Positions 24,870 to 40,425 of a stretch of DNA of 64,000 nt are shown here, one piece after another. Source of the stretch: Adhaeribacter radiodurans (GTDB lineage: Bacteria; Bacteroidota; Bacteroidia; Cytophagales; Hymenobacteraceae). The notes under the pieces are model-generated. The model was not told where the DNA came from. It saw only the letters and a list, made by a program, of their open reading frames with translations, and searched no databases. Both the position numbers and the translations under genes were made by a program. The DNA is taken from the NCBI RefSeq assembly GCF_014075995.1, contig NZ_CP055153.1, positions 1,984,001-2,048,000 on the forward strand, in the 5' to 3' direction. The first letter of the stretch is position 1, and each line of letters begins with the position of its first letter.

Positions 24870-24940
24870 CAAATCTACCCAGGCTAACGCAGGAAGAAAA
24901 TAGGTATTGGCACTCATATTTATAGGTAGTACTACCTATA
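24870..24940 (-). promoter_or_regulatory. Regulon site 1: palindrome plus promoter of the two-component operon
   Basis: On the minus strand a 20-base perfect palindrome, TATAGGTAGTACTACCTATA (24921-24940), is followed by the conserved ATGAG and CCTAT blocks and then TAGATTTG (24870-24877), matching the Bacteroidota -7 box TAnnTTTG. The palindrome centre is 53.5 bases from the box. The box lies about 100 bases upstream of the kinase ATG at 24769. The rest of this 337-base gap holds nothing else. Confidence 0.75.
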
Positions 24941-25106
24941 TCAGCACTGCTGTTATTAGATTAAATGTTGTCTAAATGCCACTAAGCTTTTGGCAGTAGT
25001 TGGCTTTTGAAAGGTGCTTGTCTTCTGCGACAAGACGAAAAGAGAAAAAAAAATCTTATTCGAATACTGGCTCCTGCTATTCCAAATAGCAACTGTTGCC
25101 ATTTAT

Positions 25107-25556
25107 TCACAGCATTCTCTTTTCAATTTCGTTTTTTAAGAGCAATGGGTTTCTTGTACCTATTCTAATTATTTGGTCGGAATCGTTAAATTTCAATTCC
25201 ACTCCGTCCGTGCCGCTCATATTATACAAAGTTCCATTCGGAATAAGTCGAATGCCCCAACCGTAGTACCAAGGTGATTGAACTATATCTACAGCCATTA
25301 TTCTCTTTAATTTTATTTTCTTTTTAATAAGACCAATGCCAAATGAGACTACAATTAAGTCCGAAGTTATTGTGGTTGTCAGGCCGAAAAAGAGCAAACA
25401 TACCAGAACAAGTATCAAGGTAATTATTGTGTAACTATTTATATCCATTGGTCTGTCTCCCATATTATTTAGGTACAAATAAGTTAGCAGAAGTTGAATA
25501 GGCACCACAAAAACAAAAATTAACCAGCCGATTGTAAATTCTTTATAATCTTTCAT
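25107..25556 (-). CDS. Two-helix membrane protein with a PH-like cytoplasmic part
   Basis: 149 residues. Two transmembrane helices occupy about 10-32 (WLIFVFVVPIQLLLTYLYL) and 42-64 (TIITLILVLVCLLFFGL). The remaining soluble part (SFGIGLIKKKIKLKRIMAVD, WYYGWGIRLIPNGTLYNMSG, VELKFNDSDQIIRIGTRNP) has the strand pattern of bacterial PH-like (bPH2) domains, often found in small envelope proteins. It has no known catalytic role. It is 302 bases downstream of the CsgG-like gene on the same strand, with a hairpin in between, so it probably has its own promoter. The family assignment is tentative. Confidence 0.6.
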   Translation of the reverse strand: MKDYKEFTIGWLIFVFVVPIQLLLTYLYLNNMGDRPMDINSYTIITLILVLVCLLFFGLTTTITSDLIVVSFGIGLIKKKIKLKRIMAVDIVQSPWYYGWGIRLIPNGTLYNMSGTDGVELKFNDSDQIIRIGTRNPLLLKNEIEKRML

Positions 25557-25721
25557 TTGTCTGTTTGTTGAATCCTTGCTAATTAATAAATCTACACAAC
25601 GGTGCGATTTCGATGATTACTCTTTTGCGATTAGTTTCCGGATGAAGGTTGAGGTTAACACTTTTTAGTAAATTTATTTACTGGAATTTCATTAACCAGT
25701 TATTGATTCAACTATAGACCA

Positions 25722-25752
25722 AAACTCACCAAGCCTGCTGGCCGGTGAGTTT
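25722..25752 (-). terminator. Hairpin downstream of the CsgG-like gene
   Basis: AAACTCACC (25722-25730) pairs perfectly with GGTGAGTTT (25744-25752), and GCC/GGC pairs extend inside the loop. On the minus strand TTTTGG follows. It lies about 107 bases after the stop at 25859 and is the likely end of that transcript. Otherwise the 25557-25858 gap shows nothing. Confidence 0.55.
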
Positions 25753-25858
25753 GCGGTTGGGTTTATTGGATTGGATTAATTGGTAAACGTACAGAAAAGT
25801 TGGTATAAAAAAGTAAATACGAAGCTTATGTTTCTCAGGTATTTACTTGCATTCAGAG

Positions 25859-26515
25859 TTAAAGGGCATACGGGAAATTACGGGAGACTTTGCGCATCAT
25901 GCGCTCAACCATGTCGTCGGTAGAAGAAGTAAAGTCATCGTCCATGGTCTTAAAAAAGCGCCACAGCAGCTCCCCATCCTGCCCGTTGTTGATGGTCATG
26001 GTCAGCGAACCCGAACCCGTCTTGCCGGCATAGCCGCCGAACACCACCGCCGTGGCCAAAGCCGCGCCATCCGAGCGCGTCTGCTCCATATCGAACTTAC
26101 CGCTGATTACCGCATCTACGCCCAAGGCTTTGGCAATCTCATCTCTAGTAAACTCCTTTAACTTGCCGTACATGCCCGCTTTCTGGAGTAAGATGTTGGT
26201 TTTCTCCACGTCCTGGAAAGTAACCGAGTAGGATTTGGCTTTGCGTAACAGGTAAGTGTACATGCTGCTTTGAATGTTCTGGGCTAATGTGGCTTCTTGC
26301 TCCTGGTGGGCTTCGGCACTAAAGTTCTTGGGTTGTTTGCGGTAGGTGATCTTGGCTTCAAAAGGCAGAATAGCTACGGTTTGGTGTTGCTTGATAGCGG
26401 TGGCTAACTGAGGACTAGCAAAGATCTGCTTGGATCCTTCGCCCAGCAGCACCTGCGCCGAGCAAAACAAAGTAGTAGCTAAGAAGAAGCATAAGAAAGT
26501 ACAAAAGGTTTTCAT
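25859..26515 (-). CDS. CsgG/HfaB-like secreted protein
   Basis: 218 residues with a signal peptide (MKTFCTFLCFFLATTLFCSA). The mature chain follows the CsgG/GNA1162-like fold: VAILPFEAKITYR, a helix (EATLAQNIQSSMYTYLLRK), then VTFQDVEKTNILLQKAG, DEIAKALGVDAVISGKFDM and a C-terminal MTINNGQDGELLWRF block. Such domains form periplasmic or outer-membrane oligomers, best known in curli export, but CsgE/F/A-like genes are absent here. It lacks a lipobox Cys. It lies 134 bases downstream of a lipoprotein on the same strand and may belong to the transcript started at regulon site 2. Confidence 0.75.
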   Translation of the reverse strand: MKTFCTFLCFFLATTLFCSAQVLLGEGSKQIFASPQLATAIKQHQTVAILPFEAKITYRKQPKNFSAEAHQEQEATLAQNIQSSMYTYLLRKAKSYSVTFQDVEKTNILLQKAGMYGKLKEFTRDEIAKALGVDAVISGKFDMEQTRSDGAALATAVVFGGYAGKTGSGSLTMTINNGQDGELLWRFFKTMDDDFTSSTDDMVERMMRKVSRNFPYAL

Positions 26516-26649
26516 AGAGTTAGTTTAGAAGTAGGTTTAGGAGAGTTTAACTGAGTTAGGGTTTAGGAAGAAAGAACAAGGAAGCAGCAGGTACTTAAAA
26601 GAGAGCGGACTTACGGCTCCGTTCTAGTAGGTTCAGAAAACCCAAAGGC

Positions 26650-26991
26650 TTAGTTGCTGGCTTTCGTGTTCGTCTCCTCCTTGGTGCTGGTGGTAGCTTT
26701 AGTGCTGGAGTTGGTGTTTGAGTTCGAGCTAGAGTTAGAGTTCAAGTTGGTACTGGTTTTCTCCTGGGGTTTGTAAATAGCACCGGTGGCAAAATCGACG
26801 GCTAAGCTGGGCCAGAATAAGAGCACATCGGCTACAAGGGCACCGATCCGGATCTCGCGTTGCGGTTCACCGGCGGCAGGACGGGTTTTCTGGTAAGCGG
26901 TTACTTTGCCCCCGAACAAGGTAGCACAGCTCGACATGGAAACGGTAAGTAAAACAACAGCGGCTACTTGAGTAATCTTTTTCATTTTCAT
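26650..26991 (-). CDS. Small lipoprotein with a Ser/Thr/Asn-rich tail
   Basis: 113 residues. The lipobox is in VVLLTVSMSSCATLFGG (Cys near residue 23), so it should be lipid-anchored. The core (VTAYQKTRPAAGEPQREIRI, GALVADVLLFWPSLAVDFAT) resembles small lipoproteins found beside CsgG-like genes, with a short hydrophobic helix. The last 38 residues are a low-complexity run of Ser, Asn, Thr and Lys (NLNSNSSSNSNTNSSTKATT), probably flexible and surface-exposed. It is the first gene under regulon site 2. Function unknown. Confidence 0.72.
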   Translation of the reverse strand: MKMKKITQVAAVVLLTVSMSSCATLFGGKVTAYQKTRPAAGEPQREIRIGALVADVLLFWPSLAVDFATGAIYKPQEKTSTNLNSNSSSNSNTNSSTKATTSTKEETNTKASN

Positions 26992-27077
26992 TTTAGGGTT
27001 AAGGATGGATGATTAATCGTTCTGTTTTTATAGTTAAGTATTTAGTTTCTCTTGAATGATGCACTGGAAGAACAAGA

Positions 27078-27145
27078 CAAAGGTACTACCACCCACTACC
27101 CGCAGGAAATAAGCTCCATTGCTCATTTTTATAGGTAGTACTGCT
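27078..27145 (-). promoter_or_regulatory. Regulon site 2: half-conserved palindrome plus promoter of the lipoprotein/CsgG pair
   Basis: On the plus strand CTCATTTTTATAGGTAGTAC continues into TGCT (27134-27145), so one half of the GGTAGTACTACC palindrome is intact and the other has drifted. On the minus strand it is followed by TACCTTTG (27078-27085), a TAnnTTTG box; the spacing is 54.5 bases, one more than at the other three sites. The box is 87 bases from the ATG at 26991. Confidence 0.65.
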
Positions 27146-27501
27146 TAATTGCTAGTCGTACAGGAGATTGTGTCAGGTTAATTTAGAGGGAGTATGGATG
27201 GATTTACTTTTTTTTACGAGCATCTTCAATTTTTGAAGGTCAGCATCCAGAATTTTCCAATAAGACACTAGAACTGATTGCTTTTCCGAAAATTACTGGT
27301 TGCACCTAAAAAGAGTTCAATCAAATAAATAGCAACTAGCGAGGCCATTGAATTATTAGCTTTCAGCAGACAAAGAACCAAGAAAATTGAAGAGGTTTTT
27401 ACTAAATTTTAATTAGAAAGATAACAGAAGAAAATTCAGGTTTATCTATTTAAAGCCGATTGCGAAGGAATTTAAGAGAAAGGCACTTTTCAGGGTAAAA
27501 C

Positions 27502-27535
27502 AAGAGAAGCCGGCGTTTACCGGCCGGCTTCTCTT
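27502..27535 (-). terminator. Rho-independent terminator of the cytochrome operon
   Basis: AAGAGAAGCCGGC (27502-27514) pairs perfectly with GCCGGCTTCTCTT (27523-27535) around an 8-base loop. On the minus strand TTGTTTTACC follows. It lies 26 bases after the stop at 27561. Apart from this and regulon site 2, the 26992-27560 gap holds no other feature. Confidence 0.85.
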
Positions 27536-27560
27536 ATTAATTGTTAGTGTTAGAATTTTT

Positions 27561-30500
27561 TTATTGCCCCATAACCAACCTGGTTTGCGCAGGAGAATTT
27601 TTAGCATCCTGTAAGTGTACACTCAAAGGGCCTTTCTGGCGTACACCCCTATCAATAGCCAATGTAATATGGTGAACTCCTTGAGGAAGGTCAACCACCA
27701 CACCCTGGTCGGCCAGTTTAATTGGTTTTTGGTCAACCCAAGCGGTGATACCGGTAGTGGAGTTAATAGCCAAGTCCACATTTCCTTTGCTCAGCACTTC
27801 TACCCCAAACTTAACAAAACTATATTGTTGGTTAGATTTTCCTTTAATTACCGGAAGCTCCTCAATAGGCAGGTGACCAGACACGGTGCTATAAGCGGGT
27901 TTAAAAGGCGTTTTTGCATTTGCTTTTAAAATACCACCTACCCCTGCATCACTAATCTTTTGGGCCAGGTCTGCATTGCCCGGCACAGTTTCCCATCGCC
28001 GCACGTACCTGTCGGTAGGCACCCGAAATTTACCTGATTCGCCTAGCTTTGATAGAAAACCCACCAGGTTCATAAATTCTTCTTTTTCCAGACCAGCAGT
28101 CAGGCCGGCTGGCATAAGCGATCCGGGTATCTTCTCTATTTTGTCGATTTGGCTTTTGGCTACGGGCACACTCATGCCGGTAACATCCCGCATCACTACT
28201 TCCGATGCCCCGTTACTTACCAGGTAGCCCATCATCTCACTGCCATCTTTTTTTACTACCCGTTGCAGTTCGTAGCCTTCTTTAATTGATTTGGTGGGGT
28301 AGAGAATGGAATTAATTATAGTTTCGACCGGTGAACTGGTTCCTAGGCTGCTCAAGTCAGGACCGATCAAACCTCCGGCTCCGCCAATGGCATGGCAGGT
28401 CACGCAATTGCTTTTACGGAATATGGCTTCTCCTTTAATGGGATCAGCGCCCCGGTTAATCTGGATAGCCAGACCCTGGATTTCCTGACTGTTAAGCTGT
28501 TGGGGCATTCGTTCCACAGGAAGCACCCCACCCCAGGCTTCGAGGGCTTGTTGCAACAATACAATGTCTTCGCTTTTTTGCCGGTGCCAGGGCACCTGTC
28601 GTTGTACAGCCAACCGGGCAGCCTTTGCCATATTTACCGGAATCTTTTTAGCCTTCAGAGTCCCGGCAAGCACCTGAGCGCCTTGCTTATTGGCAATAAA
28701 GGCCTGGAAAAGCTCAGAAACATCGGTCTGCTCTGGCATAATCCGCAGCAAGTCTACTGCCAGGCGGGCTGCTTCCGTTACATTCACCTGAGCCAATTGG
28801 GCAGTAGCTAACAGCCGTAATTCCATGGGGTTTTTACCACTAGCCAAGTCCATTAATAACTTTTCAGCTTTAGTATCGCCCCAGGTAGCAATAGCGCCCA
28901 AGGCGGCTCTTTTAATGTCTTTATCTCCCTTCTGGATTAAACTGGTCAACCGACTGGTCATTTCCTGCAGGCGCCAGTAACCTACCAGTTGCAGAGCATT
29001 AATGGCGGTAGGTTCATCTTTACTACTAATAAAACTGGCTATACGGTTCAGGTTTTTGTCTGGCTTTACTCCCCGCTGGCGGGCCGCATCCACTAAAGTC
29101 GCGAGTTGGGCTGCAACTCCTTTCTCTTGCTTGGCCTGGCCTTCTACTGCCATATTAAAAAGTACATTCAGGTCGGCAGCTTGTCCCCGCTTGGCAATGG
29201 AATTAAGCACATCTTTGGAGTACTCTTCGGGTACCTGGTTTTTTTGGTAAAGCTGAACCAGCTGTGTAACAGCCTCCTGATTGTTTACTGATTTAAGGGC
29301 AAAGGACGTTTTGCGGGCATCGCCGAAGAAATCTGGTTCCGTCTTTAATCGTTTCACCCAAACAGGTTCAAGCTCGCGGGTGGTCTGCCACAAAGCATAA
29401 TCCAGGAACTCGTCCATAGGTTTGTCTAAAACCGATAAAGCTGTTTTTGCGGCTTCTGCCGTTTGGGTTTTCCGTAAAGCAATAACAGCTTCCAAGCGTA
29501 CCAGCGGATGATTATCAGCAACTGATTTAGCCAGCAGGGCGGGTACATTGGCCACTTTATTATGCCAGAGTTGAAGGGCTCTGAGGCCGGCTGCCCGGGC
29601 CTGGTGGCTTTCTGCGTTTATTAAACGCAGCAGCAATGGCTCGTTTACTACATCCAGCGATTGGTAAACCCATAAAGCTTCGAGCAACTGGTGTTCGTAA
29701 TCAGTATTATTTTTGTCCAGGCCATCCACCCATTTTTTTAATTCCAGAATTACATTTTCTGCTCCGCGGTCCTTTAGTACCTGCTTGGCTTGGGCGCGGG
29801 TCCAATCCTCGGGTAACTTCAAAGCTTCTAATAGTTCCTGCACTGAGGCTTTGGTTAATTGTGGTTTCTTGACCAGAGGTCGGTTTTTAGCCACAATGCG
29901 CCAGATACGGCCATGCTGCTGATCCCGGCGCGGATCATGGAAATCTACTTCTCCGTGCTGAATGATGGGATTGTACCAGTCGGCTACATAAATAGCGCCA
30001 TCCGGACCTACCGAGATATCTACCGGCCGGAAAGCCACATGATCAGTCCATAACAAATCCTCTACCTGCTTGGAAGCATAGCCGCTGCCTTGTTCTTCTA
30101 ACCGAAAGCGGTTGATCCGGTTAGCCCGAAAATCATTGGTAATGACACTTCCTAGCCAGGATTCGGGTAAGTGTCGTCCGGAGATAACATCCAACCCGCA
30201 ATGTTTGGGTTGGCCCGGGTTCAGGCCGCGGATAATTCGTTCGGCACCCGGACTGGTTACAAAAGTTGCTCCGGGAAAAGCATAATTAATACCTTCATTA
30301 CCGGCACCATCCGTCAGGAAAGTCTGCCCCCAGCGGTCAAACTGAAGCCCCCAAGGATTGATCAAACCTTTGGCATATATATCCAGATTCAAGTCTTTCG
30401 GTCGCAGTTGCCACACACCACCGCCTTCGAGCCGTTTAATTCCCGCTGGAGTTTCTACGTGGCTGTAGATATAAATGGACTGGTTGAAATAAAGTGTTCC

Positions 30501-31118
30501 TTCCGGTCCCCAGCGGAAGGTATGGATCAGGTGGTGGGCATCGGCCGTTCCAAAACCGGTTAAAACCTTGCGTTTTTTGTCGGCTTTACCATCCCCGTTC
30601 GTATCGGCAAAATGCAGCAACTCGGTGGAATTAGCTACGTAGCAGCCGCCATCGCCCGGTAGAATGCCGGTGGGAGTAAATAAGCCTTCGGCAAAAATAG
30701 TAGATTTATCAGCCTTGCCATCACCATCCGTATCTTCCAGCACATATATTTTATCGTTAGCTTCTTCCCCGGTTTTCAGGTGCGGATAGGCTTTGCTACT
30801 TACCACCCACAATCTGCCATCGGCATCCCAGTTCATCTGAATAGGCTTGGCAACCATGGGCTCGGCGGCAAACAGGCTTACCTCAAAACCATCGGCCAAT
30901 TGAAACGACTCCAGTTCTTCCTTCGGATCCGGATAATCTTTGTCTTTTTCCTCGGTTGCCATAGCCGTTACCAGAACTATGGCCGGGATGGTTAAAAGCC
31001 CACCCAAAATTTTTAAAGGCCAACCTGCTAATAAGAAACGTTTGCTGCCCATTGATTTTTTTAGGAAACCAGAGAATCCGGAAATGGTGATATCTTTATT
31101 TACATTTATCTTTTTCAT
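27561..31118 (-). CDS. PVC-type heme-binding protein (beta-propeller dehydrogenase + HEAT repeats + cytochrome c domain)
   Basis: 1185 residues. After a membrane segment (about 28-52, KRFLLAGWPLKILGGLLTIP), residues ~75-430 form a propeller of the sorbosone-dehydrogenase/membrane-bound dehydrogenase type (LADGFEVSLFAAEPMVAKPI, two calcium-like DTDGDGKADKS/DTNGDGKADKK loops, VAFRPVDISVGPDGAIYVADWY). Residues ~430-860 are HEAT-like helical repeats. A cytochrome c domain follows with the heme motif CVTCH near residue 905 and LIGPDLSSLG, then a C-terminal carbohydrate-binding-like domain. The class was named from Planctomycetes and is widespread in Cytophagales; substrates are probably sugars or polyols. 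It lies 1 base downstream of an SGNH hydrolase in one operon. Confidence 0.88.
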   Translation of the reverse strand: MKKINVNKDITISGFSGFLKKSMGSKRFLLAGWPLKILGGLLTIPAIVLVTAMATEEKDKDYPDPKEELESFQLADGFEVSLFAAEPMVAKPIQMNWDADGRLWVVSSKAYPHLKTGEEANDKIYVLEDTDGDGKADKSTIFAEGLFTPTGILPGDGGCYVANSTELLHFADTNGDGKADKKRKVLTGFGTADAHHLIHTFRWGPEGTLYFNQSIYIYSHVETPAGIKRLEGGGVWQLRPKDLNLDIYAKGLINPWGLQFDRWGQTFLTDGAGNEGINYAFPGATFVTSPGAERIIRGLNPGQPKHCGLDVISGRHLPESWLGSVITNDFRANRINRFRLEEQGSGYASKQVEDLLWTDHVAFRPVDISVGPDGAIYVADWYNPIIQHGEVDFHDPRRDQQHGRIWRIVAKNRPLVKKPQLTKASVQELLEALKLPEDWTRAQAKQVLKDRGAENVILELKKWVDGLDKNNTDYEHQLLEALWVYQSLDVVNEPLLLRLINAESHQARAAGLRALQLWHNKVANVPALLAKSVADNHPLVRLEAVIALRKTQTAEAAKTALSVLDKPMDEFLDYALWQTTRELEPVWVKRLKTEPDFFGDARKTSFALKSVNNQEAVTQLVQLYQKNQVPEEYSKDVLNSIAKRGQAADLNVLFNMAVEGQAKQEKGVAAQLATLVDAARQRGVKPDKNLNRIASFISSKDEPTAINALQLVGYWRLQEMTSRLTSLIQKGDKDIKRAALGAIATWGDTKAEKLLMDLASGKNPMELRLLATAQLAQVNVTEAARLAVDLLRIMPEQTDVSELFQAFIANKQGAQVLAGTLKAKKIPVNMAKAARLAVQRQVPWHRQKSEDIVLLQQALEAWGGVLPVERMPQQLNSQEIQGLAIQINRGADPIKGEAIFRKSNCVTCHAIGGAGGLIGPDLSSLGTSSPVETIINSILYPTKSIKEGYELQRVVKKDGSEMMGYLVSNGASEVVMRDVTGMSVPVAKSQIDKIEKIPGSLMPAGLTAGLEKEEFMNLVGFLSKLGESGKFRVPTDRYVRRWETVPGNADLAQKISDAGVGGILKANAKTPFKPAYSTVSGHLPIEELPVIKGKSNQQYSFVKFGVEVLSKGNVDLAINSTTGITAWVDQKPIKLADQGVVVDLPQGVHHITLAIDRGVRQKGPLSVHLQDAKNSPAQTRLVMGQ

Positions 31119-31119
31119 G

Positions 31120-32370
31120 CTACTTTACCAAGGTAAGTTGATACACCTTTGACTTGGGCGCGCGGTTTAAGGCAATTTGTCCTTCCAGCCAGGTAATAAT
31201 ATAACTTAAATCATCTAAGGTTTTTACATGGCGGCCTTGCTCATAAGAGCGGAAACCCAGAATATAGGTCTTGTTCAGGGGCCGGTACTGTTGAAAAAAC
31301 AAATCATTTTTCTTAATGATCTTTTCGCGTAATTCTTCCGCCTGACTGAAGGAAGCCCCTTGCCGGATAACCACCCCCTCTTTCCACTTATTGGCCGAGG
31401 CGGTGATTACCTGGGAGTCGTCGGCAGTTAAGGTGTAAATGCCTTTTTTCAGACCGGTTATCTTTACTACTCGTGCTTCTTCTGCTACTTTCTCTGACTG
31501 GTGGGGCAACGGAAGCGGTAGTATTCTTTCCTCCACGGTAAATTTCAATGCCTCCTTATTACCCGAATCCAGAATTTTAGCCGCACTCGTGGCTGTAGCA
31601 GTGTGTTTGGCAGCATCAATAGTAATCGATTCCTGGCGGGAGGTTAAACCCAATCCATTTTCGACTTCAGCCGCCAGATAGTAATAGCCGCTTTCATTCA
31701 GATGAATGCCGTTGTCGGATAAGGCAACTTCCTTGTTCCGGGCTAGCAGCGGTTTAAAAACATCGATATACCGCTTGTTTCGCTCGGCAGCCGTTTTAGC
31801 AATGGCAGATCCATATTTTTCCAGCATGGCATTGCGACTTGCCAATTCCTCCGGAGCTAAGGCCGATAGTACCGGAATAGGCGATAGAAGAATAGCCTTT
31901 GCTCCAAGCTGCTCAATTTTGTCTAGTAGTTTGTTTAAACCCTCCTGAAAGTGAGAAAGGCCGGCTTCGCCTTCCTGGGCCTCAATTCCCCCATAGGCAA
32001 TAAACACCACCGTAGGCTGGGCTTTAGTCAGTTGATCCATCATCAGATCATAGGGTGTCGGTGGGTTGGTGATATAGCTGCGAGCCTCGCCCCAAACCGT
32101 ATCGCCGGTCCATCCGATGTTGCGATAAGTAACATTGCGGTTGAGCCACCGGGTGGTAAGGGCCAACTCCAAGTAGCCGTACTGCAAGTCATTCTCAAAC
32201 AAGGAGTTTCCTATAAAGACTACCCGGTCTCCATCTTTGAGCTCAAAGGCTGAATTGGGGGCTTCTACATTGGTTTGGGGTTTATTTTGCGCCAAAACGG
32301 TAGGAGAGGGTAAGGTAAGGCACGCAAACAGGATACAACTAAGGGTGGAAGATAACTTTAGTCTTCTCAT
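31120..32370 (-). CDS. SGNH/GDSL hydrolase
   Basis: 416 residues with a signal peptide (residues 1-27, ending TVLAQ). Block I is VVFIGNSLFENDLQ with the catalytic Ser in GNS; the Gly of block II lies in RNIGWTGDTVWGEAR; block III is VFIAYGGIEAQEG, with Gly where many relatives have Asn; block V is LSDNGIHLNESGYYYLA, supplying Asp and His. These are periplasmic esterases or carbohydrate de-esterases. The residue in block III is worth noting, since the oxyanion-hole Asn appears replaced. It is the first gene of the pair with the PVC-type cytochrome, only 1 base apart. Fused SGNH-PVC proteins are known, so the two probably act on the same polysaccharide-derived substrate. Confidence 0.85.
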   Translation of the reverse strand: MRRLKLSSTLSCILFACLTLPSPTVLAQNKPQTNVEAPNSAFELKDGDRVVFIGNSLFENDLQYGYLELALTTRWLNRNVTYRNIGWTGDTVWGEARSYITNPPTPYDLMMDQLTKAQPTVVFIAYGGIEAQEGEAGLSHFQEGLNKLLDKIEQLGAKAILLSPIPVLSALAPEELASRNAMLEKYGSAIAKTAAERNKRYIDVFKPLLARNKEVALSDNGIHLNESGYYYLAAEVENGLGLTSRQESITIDAAKHTATATSAAKILDSGNKEALKFTVEERILPLPLPHQSEKVAEEARVVKITGLKKGIYTLTADDSQVITASANKWKEGVVIRQGASFSQAEELREKIIKKNDLFFQQYRPLNKTYILGFRSYEQGRHVKTLDDLSYIITWLEGQIALNRAPKSKVYQLTLVK

Positions 32371-32796: not shown

Positions 32797-32927
32797 TGAT
32801 GTTGCTCAAGTAATTATTTAAAAGGCAATTAAGTAAAACTAATTTACTTTATAAGCTATTGATATTTTAGTATTACAAATCGTATCAAAAAGTTACTATA
32901 GATTTGCTTGCTAGTAAGCGTTTTCTG

Positions 32928-33106: not shown

Positions 33107-33315
33107 TGTCTGTTGCTCTTAGCTACTGCTTTTCTTCCCCATCTGGTATAATGAAGGAGGAGGAAAATGGTTTTTATAGGCTGCTACTAATTTTAAGAAT
33201 TAACGGAAAGAAACTCCCTGGTTCTACTTCACCGCTCAGAAAATGTTGATAAATTCGGTTTAATACAATCTCATACTATTAAAAAAGTAAAAACAGTAGC
33301 TAAGAATAATGACAG

Positions 33316-33488
33316 CAGTTTGGCTGTGGAGCACCTGCTAGGCTTCCGATGCGAAGCATTCCTCAGACGGAGTCGAGGAAAGGAAGTCTAGCTAGTGCGG
33401 AAGAGCCAAACGAGGCCCGCCGGCCATGAGGCAAACTTGAAGCGTCAAACAAGTTAGCACCGCCGACTGGAGACGGGAACCGGCTCCA
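33316..33488 (-). repeat. Family B repeat, copy 2 (reverse)
   Basis: Starts CAGTTTGGCTGTGGAG, includes AGAGCCAAACGAGGC, CATGAGGCAAACTTG and CAAGTTAGCACCGCCGACTG, and ends in GGCTCCA. It is the reverse complement layout of copy 1, with which it forms an inverted pair across 33107-33315. Confidence 0.85.
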
Positions 33489-33855
33489 AAGAACAACATC
33501 AATGTTTGCTATAGCAAAACTGCTTACTATGGGTATAAAAAGGTATTAACCTTCCATTACTTAGAAGATATTTTAGCCTTTTATAAGTTTATTCATTATC
33601 GGTTAATTTCCGCAACCATTAGTTCGTTGGCAGCTCCTATAAGGGGATCACGACGCCACCTTAACCCAAATTATTTACTTTTTTTATAAATACGAAACAG
33701 GTTCTTATACTACATCTAATAGCTTGATATTGGTATAGCTTTACTTAGTTAAAGAAAAGGGTTCGGCTTACTTGTAACAAGTTGCGTGCATAAAACTCCA
33801 TGAACCAGGTACAAAAGCCAGTTCTGAAATAACTTCTCTGAAAGAATTAGATTTA

Positions 33856-34728: not shown

Positions 34729-34902
34729 ATTCCTGTTTTGAGTTGCGCACCTTTCTTAGAAAGGTAATAATACAATTCTATTTATTAGAATGTATGAAAA
34801 GTTGAAAAATAAATAAGCGTGTCTAGTAGCCTAAAATATTAGCCGAATCAGCTATTAAAAAAATTAATACTCATGTGCCTACTTGATATTAATCAAGCCG
34901 GA

Positions 34903-35388
34903 TCAAACTTTTAATTTAATAGGTATATAAATTTCTTCTTCCGAATCAGGGTCTTCGTTTTTGTATTTTTCTCCTAAAATTTCGAAATGCGGTCTATTAT
35001 CCAATAAGTAGTCAGAGGCCGGTAGCCAATTTTTGAAAATATAACGGAAGAATTTTTCGCCGTTGCTGGCGGCTCCTTTATACGTAAAAACGGCGTATTG
35101 GGCGCCTGGTAAAAGAAAAGATTCCATGCCCTCGGGTATTTCCGACCAGCCGGAAACTTCTACGGCAGCCCACTTCTCAAATTCTGTTTGTGGATTACTA
35201 AAATCGACTTTTAAGGACGAATCGTAAACCTGCATGGAAATCAAGTCTGAATTTACTTTATTTTTTATGGTGTACCGTTGCGGCATAAAAGATCGCCATA
35301 GTTCGGCAGTTCGGTTGTGGGCAAAGCTCATATGCAGGTGCTTACCAATTAGCTTCTTTTCGGCTATAAACTCAATGCGTGGTTCCAT
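34903..35388 (-). CDS. GyrI-like/AraC effector-binding-domain protein
   Basis: 161 residues forming one GyrI-like domain: PRIEFIAEKKLIGKHLHMSF, WRSFMPQR, then the two-fold SHS2 pattern ending FLLPGAQYAVFTYKGAASNG, YIFKNWLPASDYLLDNRPHF and EEEIYIPIKLKV. Such stand-alone domains bind small amphipathic molecules or act as hydrolases of cyclopropanoid compounds; many are orphan. There is no DNA-binding domain, so it is not itself a regulator. It is monocistronic. Confidence 0.85.
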   Translation of the reverse strand: MEPRIEFIAEKKLIGKHLHMSFAHNRTAELWRSFMPQRYTIKNKVNSDLISMQVYDSSLKVDFSNPQTEFEKWAAVEVSGWSEIPEGMESFLLPGAQYAVFTYKGAASNGEKFFRYIFKNWLPASDYLLDNRPHFEILGEKYKNEDPDSEEEIYIPIKLKV

Positions 35389-35557
35389 TCTCTGGATTTA
35401 AATATAAATTATAACAGGTAGAATTTGCTAATTACCTAAGCTGATATTAAAAAAGCCAACCCGGTATATTTAAGCCGTAGCCTGAAGTATTGAAATGTTA
35501 TTTATCGGTTTATTCACGCGGAAACTTTTTGGATACGTAGCTTAATAGCTTCCTCCT

Positions 35558-35603
35558 GAACACCTAGGCAAAGGAGTTAAATAACTCCTTTGCCTAGGTG
35601 TTC
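35558..35603. repeat. Perfect 46-base palindrome
   Basis: Arms of 22 bases (35558-35579 and 35582-35603) are exact reverse complements with only AA between them. The arm begins GAACACCTAGGCAAAGGAG. It starts inside a copy of the ACGTAGC repeat. T-rich sequence follows on the plus strand only, so it is not an obvious terminator for either minus-strand neighbour. Confidence 0.85.
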
Positions 35604-35651
35604 TTTTCTCATCTCGAACGCACGATAATAACTTTGCTCATTTAGTAAAAA

Positions 35652-35697
35652 AGCCCTAGCTGCGGATTTTAGTAAAATTTAATCCGCAGCCAGGGCT
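35652..35697 (-). terminator. Terminator of the C10 protease/lipoprotein operon
   Basis: A 17-bp stem, AGCCCTAGCTGCGGATT (35652-35668) with AATCCGCAGCCAGGGCT (35681-35697), has one mismatch and a 12-base loop. On the minus strand a run of T follows directly. It is 80 bases after the lipoprotein stop at 35778. Confidence 0.8.
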
Positions 35698-35777
35698 ATA
35701 AAAGAATAAGAAAATAATTTCAGCAATGCTAAACTTATTATTTTGTATTATTTAACGGAATAAAAGTAAAGTTGTAT

Positions 35778-36290
35778 TTAATTCAGGGTTTTACAAGGGG
35801 CTAATTTTTGCGCAATAAAACTGTTTAGGGTAGTTTCTAGGGAAGTAAACTGATTGCGGTTACCGCAGTGGCACATATACTGCAATGGCTCTTTATCAAT
35901 TATCCGGGTTTTTAGTTCTTCCAGGCTGGGAGCTTGCGGTAAAGCTGCGTATTGCTCAAAGGTATAGCTGGTAAAAGCCACATTTTGATTAATGCCCTGG
36001 TTATCGAGTAAATACCCATCAGCTAGCATTAATGGCTTTACCTTATTGCCCCGCTTCGCAATATCTTGCGGGTGCGGGTAAGAGGCTATCCCGGTTTTGT
36101 CCAGAGTTAAAATAACGGCTACTTTGTCGGTATAATCTTGTTTGGTTTTGTACACAATAGTTGGCGGTCCGGCCGAGAAATCCAGTTGGTTACCGGTAGT
36201 AGCAGCGGCAGAGTTTTTCATGCTTTCTTTCGGGCTTTGGCAGGCTGCCGCCAGAAAAGTAGTGGCAGCCAGATAATACGTTATTTTCAT
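35778..36290 (-). CDS. Lipoprotein overlapping the C10 protease gene
   Basis: 170 residues, not recognised by family. The lipobox FLAAACQSP puts a lipid-anchored Cys at residue 17. After a Ser/Ala/Thr-rich linker the body (PPTIVYKTKQDYTDKVAVIL, MLADGYLLDNQGINQNVAFT, SYTFEQYAALPQAPSLEELK) looks like a compact alpha/beta domain, with two close cysteines in QYMCHCGNRNQF and another near the C-terminus. Its start overlaps the protease stop by 4 bases (ATGA), so the two are translationally coupled. C10 proteases of streptococci and Bacteroides are often encoded with a dedicated inhibitor, so an inhibitor, immunity or maturation role is plausible but unproven. Confidence 0.7.
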   Translation of the reverse strand: MKITYYLAATTFLAAACQSPKESMKNSAAATTGNQLDFSAGPPTIVYKTKQDYTDKVAVILTLDKTGIASYPHPQDIAKRGNKVKPLMLADGYLLDNQGINQNVAFTSYTFEQYAALPQAPSLEELKTRIIDKEPLQYMCHCGNRNQFTSLETTLNSFIAQKLAPCKTLN

Positions 36291-38884
36291 TGCTTTACGA
36301 TTTTTTGTACCTGGTAACCGGTTTTAGAAAGCGTACGGAGCAAGTAAACACCGTTCGGTAACGTAGATATATCTACCTGGGCTGTGCCTTTCGGAACAGT
36401 CATTATTACTTTGCCGGTTAAGTTGGTGAGCTCGTAGCGGGTATATTCTTTCTTTTCGTGCAGGTGCAGCACGCCGGATGTAGGGTTCGGGTACGCCTGA
36501 ACGGCCAGTTCTTCATAGTCATCTTTGGTACCAGTAACTTGTGATTGTTTTAAGGTTATTTCCAGGGCGTATGTACCTGTTTCACCCTGAAAGTACGGCG
36601 ATACCGAAGCATAAATAGTTTTACCGCCTTCTACTTCCACAGTTTCCATTTCCTGGTCGTAAGCATCGGTCCAGTTTTCTCCGTCATCCGATAACGAAAA
36701 CAGCACATCGTTGGTGTAGGTTTTACCATCTTTAGACTCGTACGAGTCGTTTACCCGGGCGCTGATTTCGTATTTACGGCCGGCCGGTAAGGTTATTTTG
36801 TAATAATCGTAATCCGTACCCACGTGTATATTGGCCTGGGGAGTAGTTACCTTGGCCGTGTTGCCGGTAAAATTCAAGGCTAGTGGAGCCGCATCTTCTA
36901 CGGTGTTGTTTTCTTCGTATTTATCCCCGCCAATGGGAGCGGCTTGTACTACCACCCGAATTGGGTTAACGTAATCTTCGGAACCAGTAATACGCCATTT
37001 ATCGGTATCTGTATAATGAAGCACGGCCATTAAATAGGTGCCGGGCTCTACGTCCAGTTTGTCATTAGTAAAAACTACCTCACCGGTTTTACAATTTTTA
37101 CATAATTGATCTACTTGTTTTTGCCCGATTTCAAAAGCAAAATTCCCTTCCAGATCGTATAAATTTAGGGCTACTATTCCGTTAAAGGAAGCTTTGCCTA
37201 CATTTTGAATAAAGGTACTCACGGCTATTTTTTTGCCCTGGTACACTTCCTTGGGTTTCTGCACCGCTACTTCTTCGTATAAATTTAAATTATTCTGGTT
37301 AATTACTTCCAGGGTAACGTGGTCGGAGTAGAAATTACCACCTTTTAGTTGTACCCATTGGCCTTCGGCTTTATGGAAAATATACAAGTCGTACACTCCA
37401 GGCAACAGTGACACCATACCTTCGGTTTTAAAAGTAAGTCCATCTGTATAATGATAATCGGGTGCTAATCCGTCTTCCGCAATGGTTTGTATAAAATCAA
37501 TAAAATTACCATTCTCATCGAAGGCAGCTGCGCCGTACTCTCCTTTAAAAGTGCCTTTACCATTGTTGTGAATATCGGTATGTACTGTAAAAGGATGGCC
37601 AAAACTTATTACCGGAGTGCTAATGGTGACATCATCGTATAATTCCAGTTCGGCAATTTCTTCATTTGGGTTTTGATTCGGGGCTTTAATGCCAATTAAG
37701 GCTTGCTGGTTGCTGTTATAACTACCCGTTCCTCCGCCGGTTCCCTGACCATCGGGGTTTAAGGCAGACAGAGCAAAGAAACCATCGTAGTAACCACTCC
37801 AACCCCAGTTCATGTGAAACAAATCGTTCTGGTCGTACCCGTCGCACACAAAGGCATGCCCCCCGCCATTGCCAAAACCCGCGTACAAAATAGGTTGGCC
37901 GTTATCTAATTCGGTTTTCATTAAATTTATCCATTCTGAATCAGAATAATCCCGGCGTTGTACACCTTTAACGTCTTCGTAACCAAAATACGTTTTTAAA
38001 GCATACTCAGAATTATGATCGCCCTGACTGGCTGCCGAAATAACGTAAGCACTGCTACCACCGGTAGAACCTACCCCGTAACTCATATCCACGCTGATCC
38101 CCACGTCGCGCATTAGTGTTGCAATAGCAGTGTTGGAACCGTTTATACTATTGGGCATATTATCCCAATCATAAGTAGTGTTACTGAAGTTCGCCGAAAG
38201 GGTACCGTATTTTTCGTGGTTGTAGGAGTGGAAGCCGCTGCCCCGGGCAGGATATTTCCAGTAACGCATAATTTGCGCCATGGCCGTAGCCACGCAACCC
38301 GTAACGGCGCGGTCGTTCGCATCGTTATCGTACGGGCAAAGTTCGTTGTAATAAGGCGATTGATCCCAGGTAGTTGAAACTAACGGATCTACTGATGCGG
38401 CTAAGGTAGAGTGGGTGCGCGCATATGGAGCCGTTCCTTCCTGTAAAGCTTTCCAGGCGCGTTTGGTTTTTTCGTTGCTGTTATTTTGCTTAGCGGCAAA
38501 CCGGATTTCGTTTTTATACCCTTCCAGCCATTTAGCTAAGTTGGTGGGCATTTTGGCTGTATTAAACGTACCCGTACGGGTATAACCTAACACCGGCTTT
38601 ACATTGTCGTCGGCGGAAATGAAAACCAGGCCGCCCGTAGGCTGGGAAGCAAATACATAATAAAAGGTAAAGGGCGTTTGGCGGGAATTAGAATTGATTT
38701 GTTTAGATACTTCCTGGTGTACCAGATTTAAAGTTTGCTGGCTTTTACCGTTTATAGCAGTGGGAGCTACCTGTGAGAAAAAGTTAGCGGCTACCCGTTG
38801 TGCATCTTCGGCGGGTACGTGTTTGGCCGCGCCGCTGAACCAACTGAAGCAGCTAATCAGGGCGAGAAAGTAAATTTTTTTCAT
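36287..38884 (-). CDS. C10-family (streptopain-like) cysteine protease with T9SS sorting domain
   Basis: 865 residues. A signal peptide (MKKIYFLALISCFSWFSGAA) and an inhibitory Spi-like propeptide (~20-165, AQRVAANFFSQVAP, GLVFISADDNVKPVLGYTRT) precede the peptidase. The catalytic Cys is in RAVTGCVATAMAQIMRYW (~195) and the His in GGGHAFVCDGYDQNDLFHMN (~342), with WGWSGYYDGFF after it. Beyond the peptidase come two Ig-like or CARDB-type domains and a PPC domain (~670-790), then a type A T9SS sorting domain (YPNPTSGVLHLHEKKEYTRY, GVYLLRTLS). It should be secreted to the surface and self-activate by removing the propeptide. Its promoter carries regulon site 3; the next gene overlaps it by 4 bases. 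Confidence 0.92.
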   Translation of the reverse strand: MKKIYFLALISCFSWFSGAAKHVPAEDAQRVAANFFSQVAPTAINGKSQQTLNLVHQEVSKQINSNSRQTPFTFYYVFASQPTGGLVFISADDNVKPVLGYTRTGTFNTAKMPTNLAKWLEGYKNEIRFAAKQNNSNEKTKRAWKALQEGTAPYARTHSTLAASVDPLVSTTWDQSPYYNELCPYDNDANDRAVTGCVATAMAQIMRYWKYPARGSGFHSYNHEKYGTLSANFSNTTYDWDNMPNSINGSNTAIATLMRDVGISVDMSYGVGSTGGSSAYVISAASQGDHNSEYALKTYFGYEDVKGVQRRDYSDSEWINLMKTELDNGQPILYAGFGNGGGHAFVCDGYDQNDLFHMNWGWSGYYDGFFALSALNPDGQGTGGGTGSYNSNQQALIGIKAPNQNPNEEIAELELYDDVTISTPVISFGHPFTVHTDIHNNGKGTFKGEYGAAAFDENGNFIDFIQTIAEDGLAPDYHYTDGLTFKTEGMVSLLPGVYDLYIFHKAEGQWVQLKGGNFYSDHVTLEVINQNNLNLYEEVAVQKPKEVYQGKKIAVSTFIQNVGKASFNGIVALNLYDLEGNFAFEIGQKQVDQLCKNCKTGEVVFTNDKLDVEPGTYLMAVLHYTDTDKWRITGSEDYVNPIRVVVQAAPIGGDKYEENNTVEDAAPLALNFTGNTAKVTTPQANIHVGTDYDYYKITLPAGRKYEISARVNDSYESKDGKTYTNDVLFSLSDDGENWTDAYDQEMETVEVEGGKTIYASVSPYFQGETGTYALEITLKQSQVTGTKDDYEELAVQAYPNPTSGVLHLHEKKEYTRYELTNLTGKVIMTVPKGTAQVDISTLPNGVYLLRTLSKTGYQVQKIVKQ

Positions 38885-39039
38885 GTTTGGATGGAGATTA
38901 AGTGCTTAGGTATGTTTAAAAAATACTAAGAATAGTTCAATGTTTCAAAAGTAGAAAAATGACTTTATTCAGTCAAGTGTATTTCAGGTTATGGTTAAAA
39001 TATTCATTCTGTTGCTTTTACCTTTTTAGACTACTGTTG

Positions 39040-39106
39040 CAAAAGTAATTTAGGGCCAGGCAGAAGGGAATAGGTTTTGTTGCTCATTTATCTGGGTAGT
39101 ACTACC
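39040..39106 (-). promoter_or_regulatory. Regulon site 3: palindrome plus promoter of the C10 protease operon
   Basis: GGTAGTACTACC (39095-39106) is followed on the minus strand by the ATGAG block (39083-39087 region), CAAAACCTAT and, 22 bases on, TACTTTTG (39040-39047). The palindrome centre is 53.5 bases from this TAnnTTTG box, exactly as at sites 1 and 4. The box is about 156 bases from the protease ATG at 38884. Confidence 0.75.
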
Positions 39107-39120
39107 TAGGTATTCTTACC

Positions 39121-39298
39121 TGGAACCTTTTCAAGTCTCCAAGCTGCGGTGTTAACTTGTTTGAAACGGCTAAGTTTGCCTCATGGCAGGCAGACCTCGT
39201 TTGGCTCTCTCGGGCGGGTCTAAGCTTCCTTTCCTCCTAACGTCGGAATTCTGCTGCGCAGAACCAGAACCTAAGAAGGCCCTCAATAGCCAAACTGG
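39121..39298 (+). repeat. Family B repeat, copy 3 (forward)
   Basis: Starts TGGAACCTTTTCAAGTCTCC, includes GTTAACTTGTTTGAAACGGC and CTCGTTTGGCTCTCTCGGGC, and ends CAATAGCCAAACTGG. It is about 178 bp and similar to copy 1 along its whole length, with scattered differences. It begins 15 bases beyond regulon site 3. Confidence 0.85.
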
Positions 39299-39537
39299 AA
39301 ATGGTTGGTAGTAGCTGCTGTTGTTCCTTTCAACTATTGCTGTTTCATTTTGATTAGTACTGTTTTAAATTTACTAAATCTAGGCAATTTGAAATTTGAC
39401 AGAAGCGGATATCCCTTCCTTAAAGCCTGTTTTAAATTAAAGTATCAGGAGAAAAGTCCCCCTTCGGAAGGTGTTAGGGGAGGAAAAAGGACCTGAAAAC
39501 TAATTGAGCAGTAAATTAGCTTTATTGGCTTCTTGGA

Positions 39538-39602
39538 GGCGCGAGCGTCTTCTCGTTCGTGTTAATTATGTGGCAGACCTCTGGCCGAGCGAACCGATAG
39601 AC
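39538..39602. repeat. Family A element, half copy
   Basis: Contains GCGCGAGCGTCTTCTCGTTC, then GACCTCTGGCC and CGAACCGATAGAC, matching only one arm of the 141-bp family A element (the right arm of copy 1, reversed). The other arm is missing. It lies between family B copy 3 and the gene ending at 39672. Confidence 0.75.
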
Positions 39603-39671
39603 GTTTTAAAAAAGTAAATAAATTAGATTTTAATTGGCTAGACCTAAAGCAATTGGCATTTAATTAGGAAA

Positions 39672-40274
39672 TTATAAAAATACGATCAGCACAACGGCTA
39701 CTACTAAGGCAGCACTGGCTAAAATACCCGTTCCGGTACCGGCGGCGGCTTTGCCTACTTTCCGCCAATGGGCTTGCTTGCGGTAGCCATTCATGTAATC
39801 GCGGTTTTGCGCTAATCGCTGATCGGGTACCCGCAACGCAACCCGACTAGGAGGGGTTACCGCCATGGCTACCGGAATGGCAAGGGTAGTACCGCCCGTA
39901 AACAGAGATGTAGCTCCGGCCGCCGCCGATCCCCAGAACACTCCTTTGCCTTTGTAGGTAAGACGCGCATCGCGGCGGCCCTGCGCGTAAAGTTCTTCCG
40001 CCGATTTTACGGGTAAGCCTAAGGTATCCAGAGGTACTTCTATTTTAATCAGTTCGGTGGTGCCATTGGCGTACTGAATCATAAATACTTCGGTTTTGGG
40101 CAAAGACAAAGTAAGGCTTTGCAGAGAATCAGAAGTAGTGTAAAAAATATCAGATTCATTAACTTGGGTAACTTTCGCGTGGAGCTGATCGCCGGAAGTT
40201 TTAAAAATAATGTCTTGGGCCTGAGTAGTGAACAGACCGAAGAAGCATACCAAAAAAAAGACTGCCTTTTTCAT
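39672..40274 (-). CDS. Secreted/membrane protein of unknown function
   Basis: 200 residues with a signal peptide (MKKAVFFLVCFFGLFTTQAQ). The N-terminal part is beta-rich (DIIFKTSGDQLHAKVTQVNE, SDIFYTTSDSL, EVFMIQYANGTTELIKIEV). The middle has an invariant-looking ELYAQGRRDARLTYKGKG and a glycine-rich hydrophobic segment (GVFWGSAAAGATSLFTGGTT), and the C-terminus is a second hydrophobic helix (GILASAALVVAVVLIVFL). Two membrane segments are likely, flanking a basic loop (NRDYMNGYRKQAHWRKVGKA). No enzyme motif is visible; similar proteins occur in Bacteroidota near secreted products. It is under regulon site 4. Confidence 0.65.
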   Translation of the reverse strand: MKKAVFFLVCFFGLFTTQAQDIIFKTSGDQLHAKVTQVNESDIFYTTSDSLQSLTLSLPKTEVFMIQYANGTTELIKIEVPLDTLGLPVKSAEELYAQGRRDARLTYKGKGVFWGSAAAGATSLFTGGTTLAIPVAMAVTPPSRVALRVPDQRLAQNRDYMNGYRKQAHWRKVGKAAAGTGTGILASAALVVAVVLIVFL

Positions 40275-40358
40275 AATTTTAAGCGCCGTTGTAGCCCTGC
40301 TAGCCGCGGCTTTTATTTACTTTAGGTTGGATAGAATTCGTATTTGAATTTTATCCAA

Positions 40359-40425
40359 CAAAAATAGACGGTTTAAACCCGGAGCGGTATAGGTTTTGCT
40401 GCTCATTTATATGAGTACTACTAGC
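40359..40425 (-). promoter_or_regulatory. Regulon site 4: diverged palindrome plus promoter
   Basis: The plus strand reads GCTCATTTATATGAGTACTA CTAGC with the palindrome position at 40414-40425 (AGTACTACTAGC in place of GGTAGTACTACC). On the minus strand ATGAGCAGCAAAACCTAT follows, then 22 bases, then TATTTTTG (40359-40366). The spacing from palindrome centre to box is again 53.5. The box is 85 bases from the ATG at 40274. Nothing else was seen in the 40275-40633 gap. Confidence 0.65.

What the first reader, a model, noticed from the sequence alone, without database searches (positions are those of the whole stretch)
24870..40425. Four transcription units share one upstream palindrome-promoter module with fixed geometry
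Sites at 24870-24940, 27078-27145, 39040-39106 and 40359-40425 all lie on the minus strand, 85-156 bases upstream of start codons. Each has, in order, a GGTAGTACTACC-type palindrome (perfect at sites 1 and 3, half-conserved at 2, diverged at 4), an A/T block ending ATGAG, a CCTAT block 8 bases on, and a TAnnTTTG box. The palindrome centre is 53.5, 54.5, 53.5 and 53.5 bases from the box. The variants of the box (TAGATTTG, TACCTTTG, TACTTTTG, TATTTTTG) fit the known Bacteroidota -7 consensus. The sequences between blocks are unrelated, so the units were not simply duplicated. The genes served are a two-component pair, a lipoprotein/CsgG-like pair, a C10 protease/lipoprotein pair and an unknown membrane protein. 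The geometry is that of an activator bound about 60-65 bases before the start site. The LuxR-type regulator at 23124-23765 lies under site 1, so autoregulation is the simplest model. I know of no description of this regulon.
Basis: partly seen in the sequence, partly recalled or inferred. Interest (0 to 1): 0.8.

Follow-up and report, generated by a model that had tools for sequence, protein, structure and literature searches.

The report
Paired-dimer operator of an envelope regulon
Several genes for surface and secreted proteins in this bacterium share one 40-base DNA switch, made of two copies of the same palindrome just in front of the promoter, and comparison of genomes points to the neighbouring response regulator as the protein that reads it.

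Summary
The four sites are real. "Palindrome + A/T block + CCTAT" is two tandem copies of one 18-bp dyad, HTRRGYA-N4-TRCYYAT, centres 22-23 bp apart, the second ending 22-23 bp before TAnnTTTG. The genome has eight such operators, one found only by the model (E 1e-8; next hit 0.04), under the regulator's operon and genes for envelope or secreted proteins. Operators follow the window's response regulator: 7 of 7 genomes with an orthologue (57% identity or more) have one, against 3 of 383 others of the order; 10 of 10 orthologue loci from Botryobacter, Rhodocytophaga and Dyadobacter carry one. Half-sites are kept while spacers change. The kinase beside the regulator lacks sensor and ATP-site motifs in 4 of 4 species; an intact 7TMR-DISM kinase stands alone 0.39 Mb away beside the eighth operator. 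Best reading: a NarL-type regulator, served by a kinase elsewhere, binds as two dimers (predicted -65.5 and -43.5) and activates promoters without a -33 TTG, its own included. No binding or expression data were available.

The parts
24922..24939 (-). site 1, distal dyad ATAGGTAGTACTACCTAT
   Evidence: sequence
24900..24917 (-). site 1, proximal dyad ATGAGTGCCAATACCTAT
   Evidence: dyad-1 matrix ranks it first of 1181 positions
24870..24877 (-). site 1, -7 box TAGATTTG
23762..24769 (-). sensorless, degenerate HisKA_3 kinase paralogue (335 aa); first gene under site 1
   Evidence: HisKA_3 only; N and G boxes lost, H and DxxxQ kept; model; DesK-like fold
23124..23765 (-). NarL/FixJ-type response regulator (213 aa), proposed reader of the operator
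27131..27148 (-). site 2, distal dyad TTAAGCAGTACTACCTAT
27109..27126 (-). site 2, proximal dyad ATGAGCAATGGAGCTTAT
   Evidence: ranks second of 1181
27078..27085 (-). site 2, -7 box TACCTTTG (spacing 1 bp longer)
26650..26991 (-). 113-aa predicted lipoprotein (CATLFGG) under site 2
   Evidence: no Pfam or NCBIfam match
25859..26515 (-).
   Evidence: only DUF5410 below its cut-off, no NCBIfam match
39092..39109 (-). site 3, distal dyad CTAGGTAGTACTACCCAG
39070..39087 (-). site 3, proximal dyad ATGAGCAACAAAACCTAT
   Evidence: ranks first
39040..39047 (-). site 3, -7 box TACTTTTG
36287..38884 (-). secreted C10-family peptidase with inhibitor prodomain and Por secretion tail, under site 3
35778..36290 (-). 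170-aa protein following the peptidase
   Evidence: no match over a cut-off
40411..40428 (-). site 4, distal dyad CTGGCTAGTAGTACTCAT
40389..40406 (-). site 4, proximal dyad ATGAGCAGCAAAACCTAT
   Evidence: ranks second of 1181
40359..40366 (-). site 4, -7 box TATTTTTG
39672..40274 (-). 200-aa protein with signal peptide and C-terminal hydrophobic stretch (by eye), under site 4
   Evidence: (no match)

Best explanation
The module is the operator and core promoter of a regulon run by the NarL/FixJ-type response regulator at 23124-23765. Shown by sequence: the operator is four alternating heptamers, HTRRGYA-N4-TRCYYAT, N4 or N5, then WTRAGYR-N4-nnCYTAT, i.e. two tandem copies of one 18-bp dyad with centres 22 or 23 bp apart, the proximal one ending 22-23 bp before TAnnTTTG. 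Shown by comparison: operator and regulator occur together and are often linked. Inferred: the phosphorylated regulator binds as two dimers on nearly the same DNA face; with the box at -12 to -5 the centres fall at -65.5 and -43.5, so the proximal dimer takes the place of the -33 element (TTG in 1 of 27 sites) and recruits polymerase (class II activation). It activates its own operon and seven other units (six kinds, one present twice) for lipoproteins, an outer-membrane-like protein and a secreted peptidase. Inferred: its kinase is the intact 7TMR-DISM histidine kinase standing alone beside the eighth operator (G000:C2:1618702-1620564), while the kinase-like protein encoded with the regulator has lost sensor and ATP site and keeps H and DxxxQ, so it is most likely a phosphatase or sequestering brake in a feedback loop. 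The last step is the least certain.
For: Genome: 8 sites at E <= 1e-8, one outside the training set, next hit 0.0375; all 8 lie 32-154 bases upstream of ORFs. Relatives (59 genomes, R1, E <= 0.01): 8, 6, 8 and 4 sites in the four congeners with the regulator (G000, G003, G005, G006; 91-100% identity), 0 in the four without it (G001, G002, G004, G007; G007 78% complete), 0 in 29 other genomes of the family, one hit each in 2 of 22 of the order. Order (390 genomes): 7 of 7 with a regulator at E <= 1e-70 have an operator (E <= 1e-3), 3 of 383 others do; p = 4.7e-13 taking genomes as independent, which they are not; 3 of the 7 supplied training sites, 4 did not. Contrasts inside genera: g10, G096 has both and G040 neither; g16, G355 both and G046 neither. 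Linkage: 10 of 10 loci of Botryobacter, Rhodocytophaga and Dyadobacter hold an operator, E 2.4e-16 to 4.6e-9, none in training, against 0 of 10 loci with 34-44% regulators. Second dyad: a matrix of dyad 1 alone ranks dyad 2 first of 1181 positions in 21 of 24 sites and second in 3. Footprint: half-sites 69-93% identical between promoters of homologous units, dyad-box spacer 43-54%, 60 bp upstream 29-40% (21 of the 26 four-species rows then in hand; four second copies and the single s5 left out). The outer-membrane target is present without operator in G001, G002 and G007, which lack the regulator. Kinases.
Against: No transcription start, binding or expression was measured. G049 has a good site (34.6 bits, E 6e-8) before a uvrA-like gene and no regulator at E <= 1e-45. 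Six of seven genomes with a 44-49% regulator have no operator, and 26 loci around 31-45% relatives gave nothing above 15.1 bits, so the rule holds for close orthologues only. Regulon membership shifts: 34-46% homologues of the outer-membrane target in six genomes that do have the regulator or a relative (L284-L286, L288-L290) have no operator, so its absence in G001 and G002 need not be a loss. The genome holds 12 other strong NarL-like GerE proteins, whose presence pattern was not traced. Activation rather than repression rests on position and on the missing -33 element. The brake role of the degenerate kinase rests on motifs alone; mere decay is possible (it evolves faster: 44-76% identity among four species against 68-85% for the intact kinases over the same region).
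Confidence: 0.85

Rival explanations
1. The operator belongs to another NarL-type regulator (or other factor) of the genome that happens to be kept in the same species.
For: The genome holds 17 GerE matches, 13 of them strong, this regulator included; NarL-type half-sites are shared within the family (TACYYMT, PMC4886647, passage). G049 has an operator without a close orthologue.
Against: The operator lies within 5 kb of this regulator's gene in 10 of 10 outgroup loci; 8 of those 10 genomes were searched whole and each has only one site below 1e-4. It heads the run of genes holding the regulator in the Dyadobacter locus read in full (L128), G355 and G373.
Confidence: 0.07
2. The regulator represses these promoters: dimers at -65 and -43 block polymerase.
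For: The proximal dyad touches the -35 region, a place where bound protein can also block.
Against: 26 of 27 sites lack TTG in the 8 bases after dyad 2, where a -33 element would be, as expected of activator-dependent promoters; the distance from dyad 2 to box is fixed at 22 bp (23 at the site-2 type, 21 at G049), which repression would not need.
Confidence: 0.1
3. The dimer unit is the inner pair TACYYAT-N4-ATGAGYA, with the outer heptamers as accessory half-sites, as in NarL's tail-to-tail sites.
For: The inner pair has the orientation of NarL 7-2-7 sites (recalled) and is the better-kept pair at sites 2 and 4.
Against: In the alignment no gap falls inside HTRRGYA-N4-TRCYYAT or inside the second dyad, while the distance between the dyads is 4 or 5 bp (5 in 6 of 24 sites).
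Confidence: 0.15
4. The modules are copies of a mobile or duplicated promoter with no regulator.
For: The site-2 unit has a near-identical copy in G000 and in G005.
Against: Spacers and flanks of the other modules are unrelated; half-sites are kept over genus and family distance while spacers turn over.
Confidence: 0.02

Closest known systems
NarX/NarL and NarQ/NarP of Escherichia coli
   Same: HisKA_3-type kinase and REC-GerE regulator; half-site TACYYMT (PMC4886647, passage) fits TRCYYAT
   Different: NarL 7-2-7 sites are tail-to-tail with 2 bp (recalled); here the rigid unit is head-to-head with 4 bp, doubled at 22-23 bp, in front of a Bacteroidota -7 box; no nitrate genes were seen among the targets. 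NCBIfam's NarL model matches the regulator far below its cut-off (132.6 of 250 bits)
VraR/LiaR and DesK/DesR (Bacillota)
   Same: Nearest solved relatives of the regulator by sequence are VraR, NarL and DevR; the DesK cytosolic domain is the nearest fold of the degenerate kinase, also in its phosphatase state
   Different: General family likeness only; operators and targets were not compared
DivL-type pseudo-histidine kinases (Caulobacter)
   Same: Kinase-like protein called a pseudo-histidine kinase that regulates a pathway (PMC9430884, start of abstract in a listing; DivL 4q20 among the fold hits)
   Different: DivL acts on the kinase CckA; here the protein has no sensor, lies in the regulator's own operon and is a relative of the intact partner kinase
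Bacteroidota sigma-A promoters (TAnnTTTG at -12 to -5)
   Same: Box fits (PMC9723704, passages)
   Different: No -33 TTG; operator takes its place

Membership tests
NarL/FixJ response regulators | Receiver domain plus C-terminal GerE/LuxR helix-turn-helix | tested here: met
   Response_reg 1.1e-29 and GerE 1.3e-15; phospho-acceptor stretch LDIDMP in the regulator and its closest orthologues
NarL/FixJ response regulators | Binds TACYYMT-like heptamers as inverted pairs | tested here: inconclusive
   Operator half-sites fit TRCYYAT; binding itself untested
NarL 7-2-7 sites | Two heptamers, tail-to-tail, 2-bp spacer (recalled) | tested here: not met
   Spacers are 4 bp within dyads and 4-5 bp between them
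Quorum-sensing LuxR proteins | Autoinducer-binding domain | tested here: not met
   Only Response_reg and GerE above cut-off
Orthodox two-component pair (adjacent kinase and regulator) | Adjacent kinase with HATPase N and G boxes | tested here: not met
   No HATPase match; Asn of the N box and DNGxG lost in 4 of 4 species
Orthodox two-component pair (adjacent kinase and regulator) | Intact cognate kinase in the genome | tested here: inconclusive
   A 637-aa kinase at G000:C2:1618702-1620564 is the orthologue (58%) of the kinase next to the regulator in Rhodocytophaga, and its presence pattern equals that of the regulator in 8 of 8 congeners at E <= 1e-40. That it serves this regulator is untested
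HisKA_3 phosphatases | DxxxQ after the phospho-accepting His (PMC3510030, passages) | tested here: met
   HDTLGQ, HDTLGQ, HDKLGQ, HDNLGQ in the four degenerate kinases; activity untested
Bacteroidota sigma-A promoter | -7 box TAnnTTTG | tested here: met
   25 of 25 rows of A2 keep TA and TTTG
Bacteroidota sigma-A promoter | -33 TTG (recalled) | tested here: not met
   TTG within 8 nt after dyad 2 in 1 of 27 sites

The most novel reading that the evidence does not exclude
A split two-component system with a built-in brake: the intact kinase has been parted from its regulator and stands alone beside a target unit, while the regulator's own autoregulated operon carries a sensorless, ATP-site-dead paralogue of that kinase which survives as a dedicated phosphatase or buffer of the phosphorylated regulator, so that every rise in regulator also raises its own off-switch.
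Probability: 0.4. Interest if true: 0.68.

Novelty: new variant of a known kind. Interest (0 to 1): 0.55.

Why it matters
Few operators of response regulators are known to me in environmental Bacteroidota. Here sequence alone gives regulator, operator, promoter geometry and targets, with the operator found in three named families of Cytophagales and with congeners that lack the whole circuit as controls. It offers a directly testable case of class II activation at a TAnnTTTG promoter without a -33 TTG, and of a kinase paralogue that seems to have lost its kinase function inside a feedback operon.

Tried and rejected
A first own-genome pattern had the ATGAG-CCTAT spacing one base short and found two chance hits; its counts are not used. 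Weak hits (L007, L010, L011, L013) and (L018, L020, L021, L024, L025, L028) were looked at and dropped as lacking the second dyad or the box, or lying inside genes; L023, L026 and L027 were not looked at. Possible third dyads (22 bp downstream at L060 and L122, 29-30 bp at L054 and L113) were not pursued. A reading of the modules as one palindrome plus unrelated blocks was given up. Literature: ten searches listed no paper that by title or abstract start describes this operator or regulon; the library is open-access PMC only. I read passages of PMC4886647, PMC9723704 and PMC3510030, and listings or abstract starts of the rest.

Caveats on counts: one search used 24 four-species sites plus L109; two near-identical copies (L053, L114) were left out (the script's printed label '23 from 4 species' is wrong; L109 itself ranks its second dyad only 11th). 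A2 used 25 of 27 rows; L114 and L109 left out. The 27 rows hold duplicates and L109. Searches over 40 genomes use stricter filters that lose weak matches. One search kept the best 80 of 387 relatives.
Full report
Observation. The four sites exist at the stated coordinates on the minus strand with the stated geometry. The window is G000:C2:1984001-2048000 of a 6.94-Mb genome in two contigs.

Anatomy. Aligning the sites on ATGAG shows four heptamers at 11-bp steps, alternating in direction: HTRRGYA n4 TRCYYAT n4 ATGAGYR n4 nnCYTAT. The 'A/T block ending ATGAG' and the 'CCTAT block' are thus the two half-sites of a second dyad like the palindrome. A matrix made from first dyads only (leave-one-out) ranks the second dyad first of 1181 positions in 21 of 24 sites and second in the other 3. 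In G003 and G006 the second dyad is often itself nearly a palindrome, e.g. TTGAGTACTAGTACTTAT. No gap falls inside a dyad in the alignment of 25 sites; between dyads the distance is 4 bp, or 5 bp in 6 of 24 sites; dyad 2 to TAnnTTTG is 22 bp, or 23 bp in the site-2 type. I infer that the 18-bp dyad is the dimer site and that two dimers sit 22-23 bp apart. With the box at -12 to -5 (Flavobacterium psychrophilum; PMC9723704, passages) the centres are -65.5 and -43.5 (-66.5 and -44.5 at site 2). TTG at the place of a -33 element is seen in 1 of 27 sites.

Genome-wide. A sequence model of 7 sites (R1) finds in the genome those 7, an eighth at C2:1618237-1618309 (E 9.7e-9) and then noise (E 0.0375). 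All eight lie 32-154 bases (box end to start codon) before an ORF on the same strand. Units: degenerate kinase + regulator; lipoprotein + 218-aa protein (two copies); C10 peptidase; 200-aa protein; a lipoprotein with a look of carboxypeptidase-regulatory domain (by eye, not scanned); 195-aa lipoprotein; 177-aa outer-membrane-like protein + 210-aa lipoprotein (no Pfam match for the last two). All first genes except that of the regulatory unit have signal or lipoprotein leaders by eye.

Relatives. The regulator has 91-96% orthologues in congeners G003, G005, G006; the best relatives in G001, G002, G004, G007 are 37% or less (G007 is 78% complete). R1 finds 8, 6, 8 and 4 sites (E <= 0.01) in G000, G003, G005, G006 and none in the other four congeners; none in 29 other genomes of the family; one each in G049 and G055 among 22 of the order. 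With the wider model R2 (A2, 25 sites) G003 has 7 and G006 6, one of these partial. The same genes stand under the sites even where gene order changed: in G003 and G006 the 200-aa gene and the peptidase follow one site. The outer-membrane target occurs in G001, G002, G007 at 55-63% identity with no operator in front; but its 34-46% homologues in six genomes that carry the regulator or a relative lack an operator too, so membership varies between lineages. Between promoters of homologous units half-sites are 69-93% identical, the dyad-box spacer 43-54%, the 60 bp upstream 29-40% (21 of 26 rows).

Further out. Orthologues of 65-70% exist in Botryobacter ruber (Hymenobacteraceae), Rhodocytophaga aerolata (Rhodocytophagaceae) and eight Dyadobacter records (Spirosomataceae). 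All 10 loci hold an operator (E 2.4e-16 to 4.6e-9 in a 424-kb search that also held the window and 10 loci with 34-44% regulators, none of which scored). Eight of these ten genomes were searched whole; each has one site below 1e-4. In the Dyadobacter locus read in full (L128) the order is operator, remnant of a lipoprotein gene, glycosyltransferase, kinase, regulator; a 413-431-aa lipoprotein gene is first in 4 of 8 Dyadobacter loci, a 72-aa remnant in 3, none clear in 1 (kinase seen in 7 of 8). In G373 and G355 the operator precedes a lipoprotein gene followed by kinase and regulator; G355 has a second, weaker site right behind the regulator; in G055 a match to the second dyad and box lies just before the kinase. 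In Botryobacter the divergent operator precedes a 67% homologue of the outer-membrane target and a lipoprotein like that of operator 8 (the latter by eye); in Rhodocytophaga a cupin and another lipoprotein.

Table over 390 genomes of the order. Regulator at E <= 1e-70: G000, G003, G006, G096, G275, G355, G373, all 7 with an operator. Regulator at 5e-54 to 6e-46 (44-49% identity): 1 of 7 (G157, partial match). No regulator at 1e-45: 2 of 376, G055 (whose 44% regulator at E 3.4e-38 lies 1.8 kb from one of its two weak sites) and G049 (a true exception, before a uvrA-like gene). Fisher 7/7 against 3/383: p = 4.7e-13; genomes are related and three of the seven gave training sites, so the figure overstates, but G096 against G040 in genus g10 and G355 against G046 in g16 repeat the contrast of genus g1. 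G096 and G275 show the same coordinates as the Rhodocytophaga and Dyadobacter CY323 genomes, so they are not additional. Among 26 loci around 31-45% relatives the best match was 15.1 bits; these loci reach only about 1.5 kb to either side.

Regulator helix. The nine orthologues of 57% or more that I aligned carry NHRMN in the recognition region; the 44-49% group carries HRTN, HRAN or HRSN. G157 (HRAN) and G055 (HRNN), which have partial sites, do not fit a simple rule, so this is only a lead.

The kinases. The three outgroup kinases scanned (Botryobacter, Rhodocytophaga, Dyadobacter) are 7TMR-DISM proteins with HisKA_3 and HATPase_c. The protein beside the regulator in the window has HisKA_3 only; in 4 of 4 species the N-box Asn and the DNGxG box are gone while HDxLGQ stays. 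AlphaFold gives mean pLDDT 59, with residues 1-123 below 50 and blocks of 68-88 over 201-330; the nearest solved fold is the DesK cytosolic domain, phosphatase-state complexes included (E 2e-9 and up; TM-score normalised to the query about 0.3-0.37). The intact orthologue of the outgroup kinases is at C2:1618702-1620564, divergent from operator 8, with no regulator beside it in the stretch read; the same in G003, G005, G006, and no match at 1e-40 in the four congeners without the regulator. So kinase, regulator and operators share one presence pattern in 8 of 8 congeners. DxxxQ is the phosphatase motif of HisKA_3 kinases (NarX work as told in PMC3510030, passages); a phosphatase or buffering role is my inference. 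7TMR-DISMED2 domains have been proposed to bind carbohydrate-like ligands (recalled), so the signal may be periplasmic.

Verdict. A real regulon of NarL type with a doubled head-to-head operator, not described in anything listed. It works like class II activation by LuxR/NarL proteins; its regulator is a member of the NarL/FixJ family; it is not an orthodox adjacent two-component pair.

Noticed in passing
L299:3947-4019 (G049:C10:177946-178018): Operator-like site with perfect CTGAGTAATATTACTCAG and TACCTTTG before a uvrA-like ORF in a genome with no close regulator orthologue; perhaps a related regulator with the same half-site.
   Followed up: partly
G000:C2:1694757 and window 25859-27150: Near-identical second copy of the whole site-2 unit with its operator; G005 too has two near-identical copies, G003 and G006 two diverged ones.
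   Followed up: partly
upstream of G000:C2:83031, L126:5649-6371, L127:7185-7772: Cupin-like genes recur next to or under operators of this regulon (only the Rhodocytophaga one was scanned).
   Followed up: no
L060, L122 (+22), L054 (+30), L113 (+29): Partial third dyad between operator and -7 box at a few promoters.
   Followed up: no
G061:C35:431447, G062:C30:128700, G063:C7:61275, G064:C1:56260, G066:C4:496577: Five Dyadobacter genomes share one weak match (E about 0.04) to the second dyad and spacer only; perhaps one conserved locus.
   Followed up: no
window 27561-32370: Adjacent genes for a DUF7133-HEAT-cytochrome c protein and a GDSL esterase.
   Followed up: no
window 42086-44518: Receptor-like protein with carboxypeptidase-regulatory and TonB-receptor plug domains just upstream of the regulon cluster.
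   Followed up: no
G006:C1:1639214-1639268: Proximal-dyad-and-box-only match (E 7e-5) with R2; its downstream gene was not looked at.
   Followed up: no
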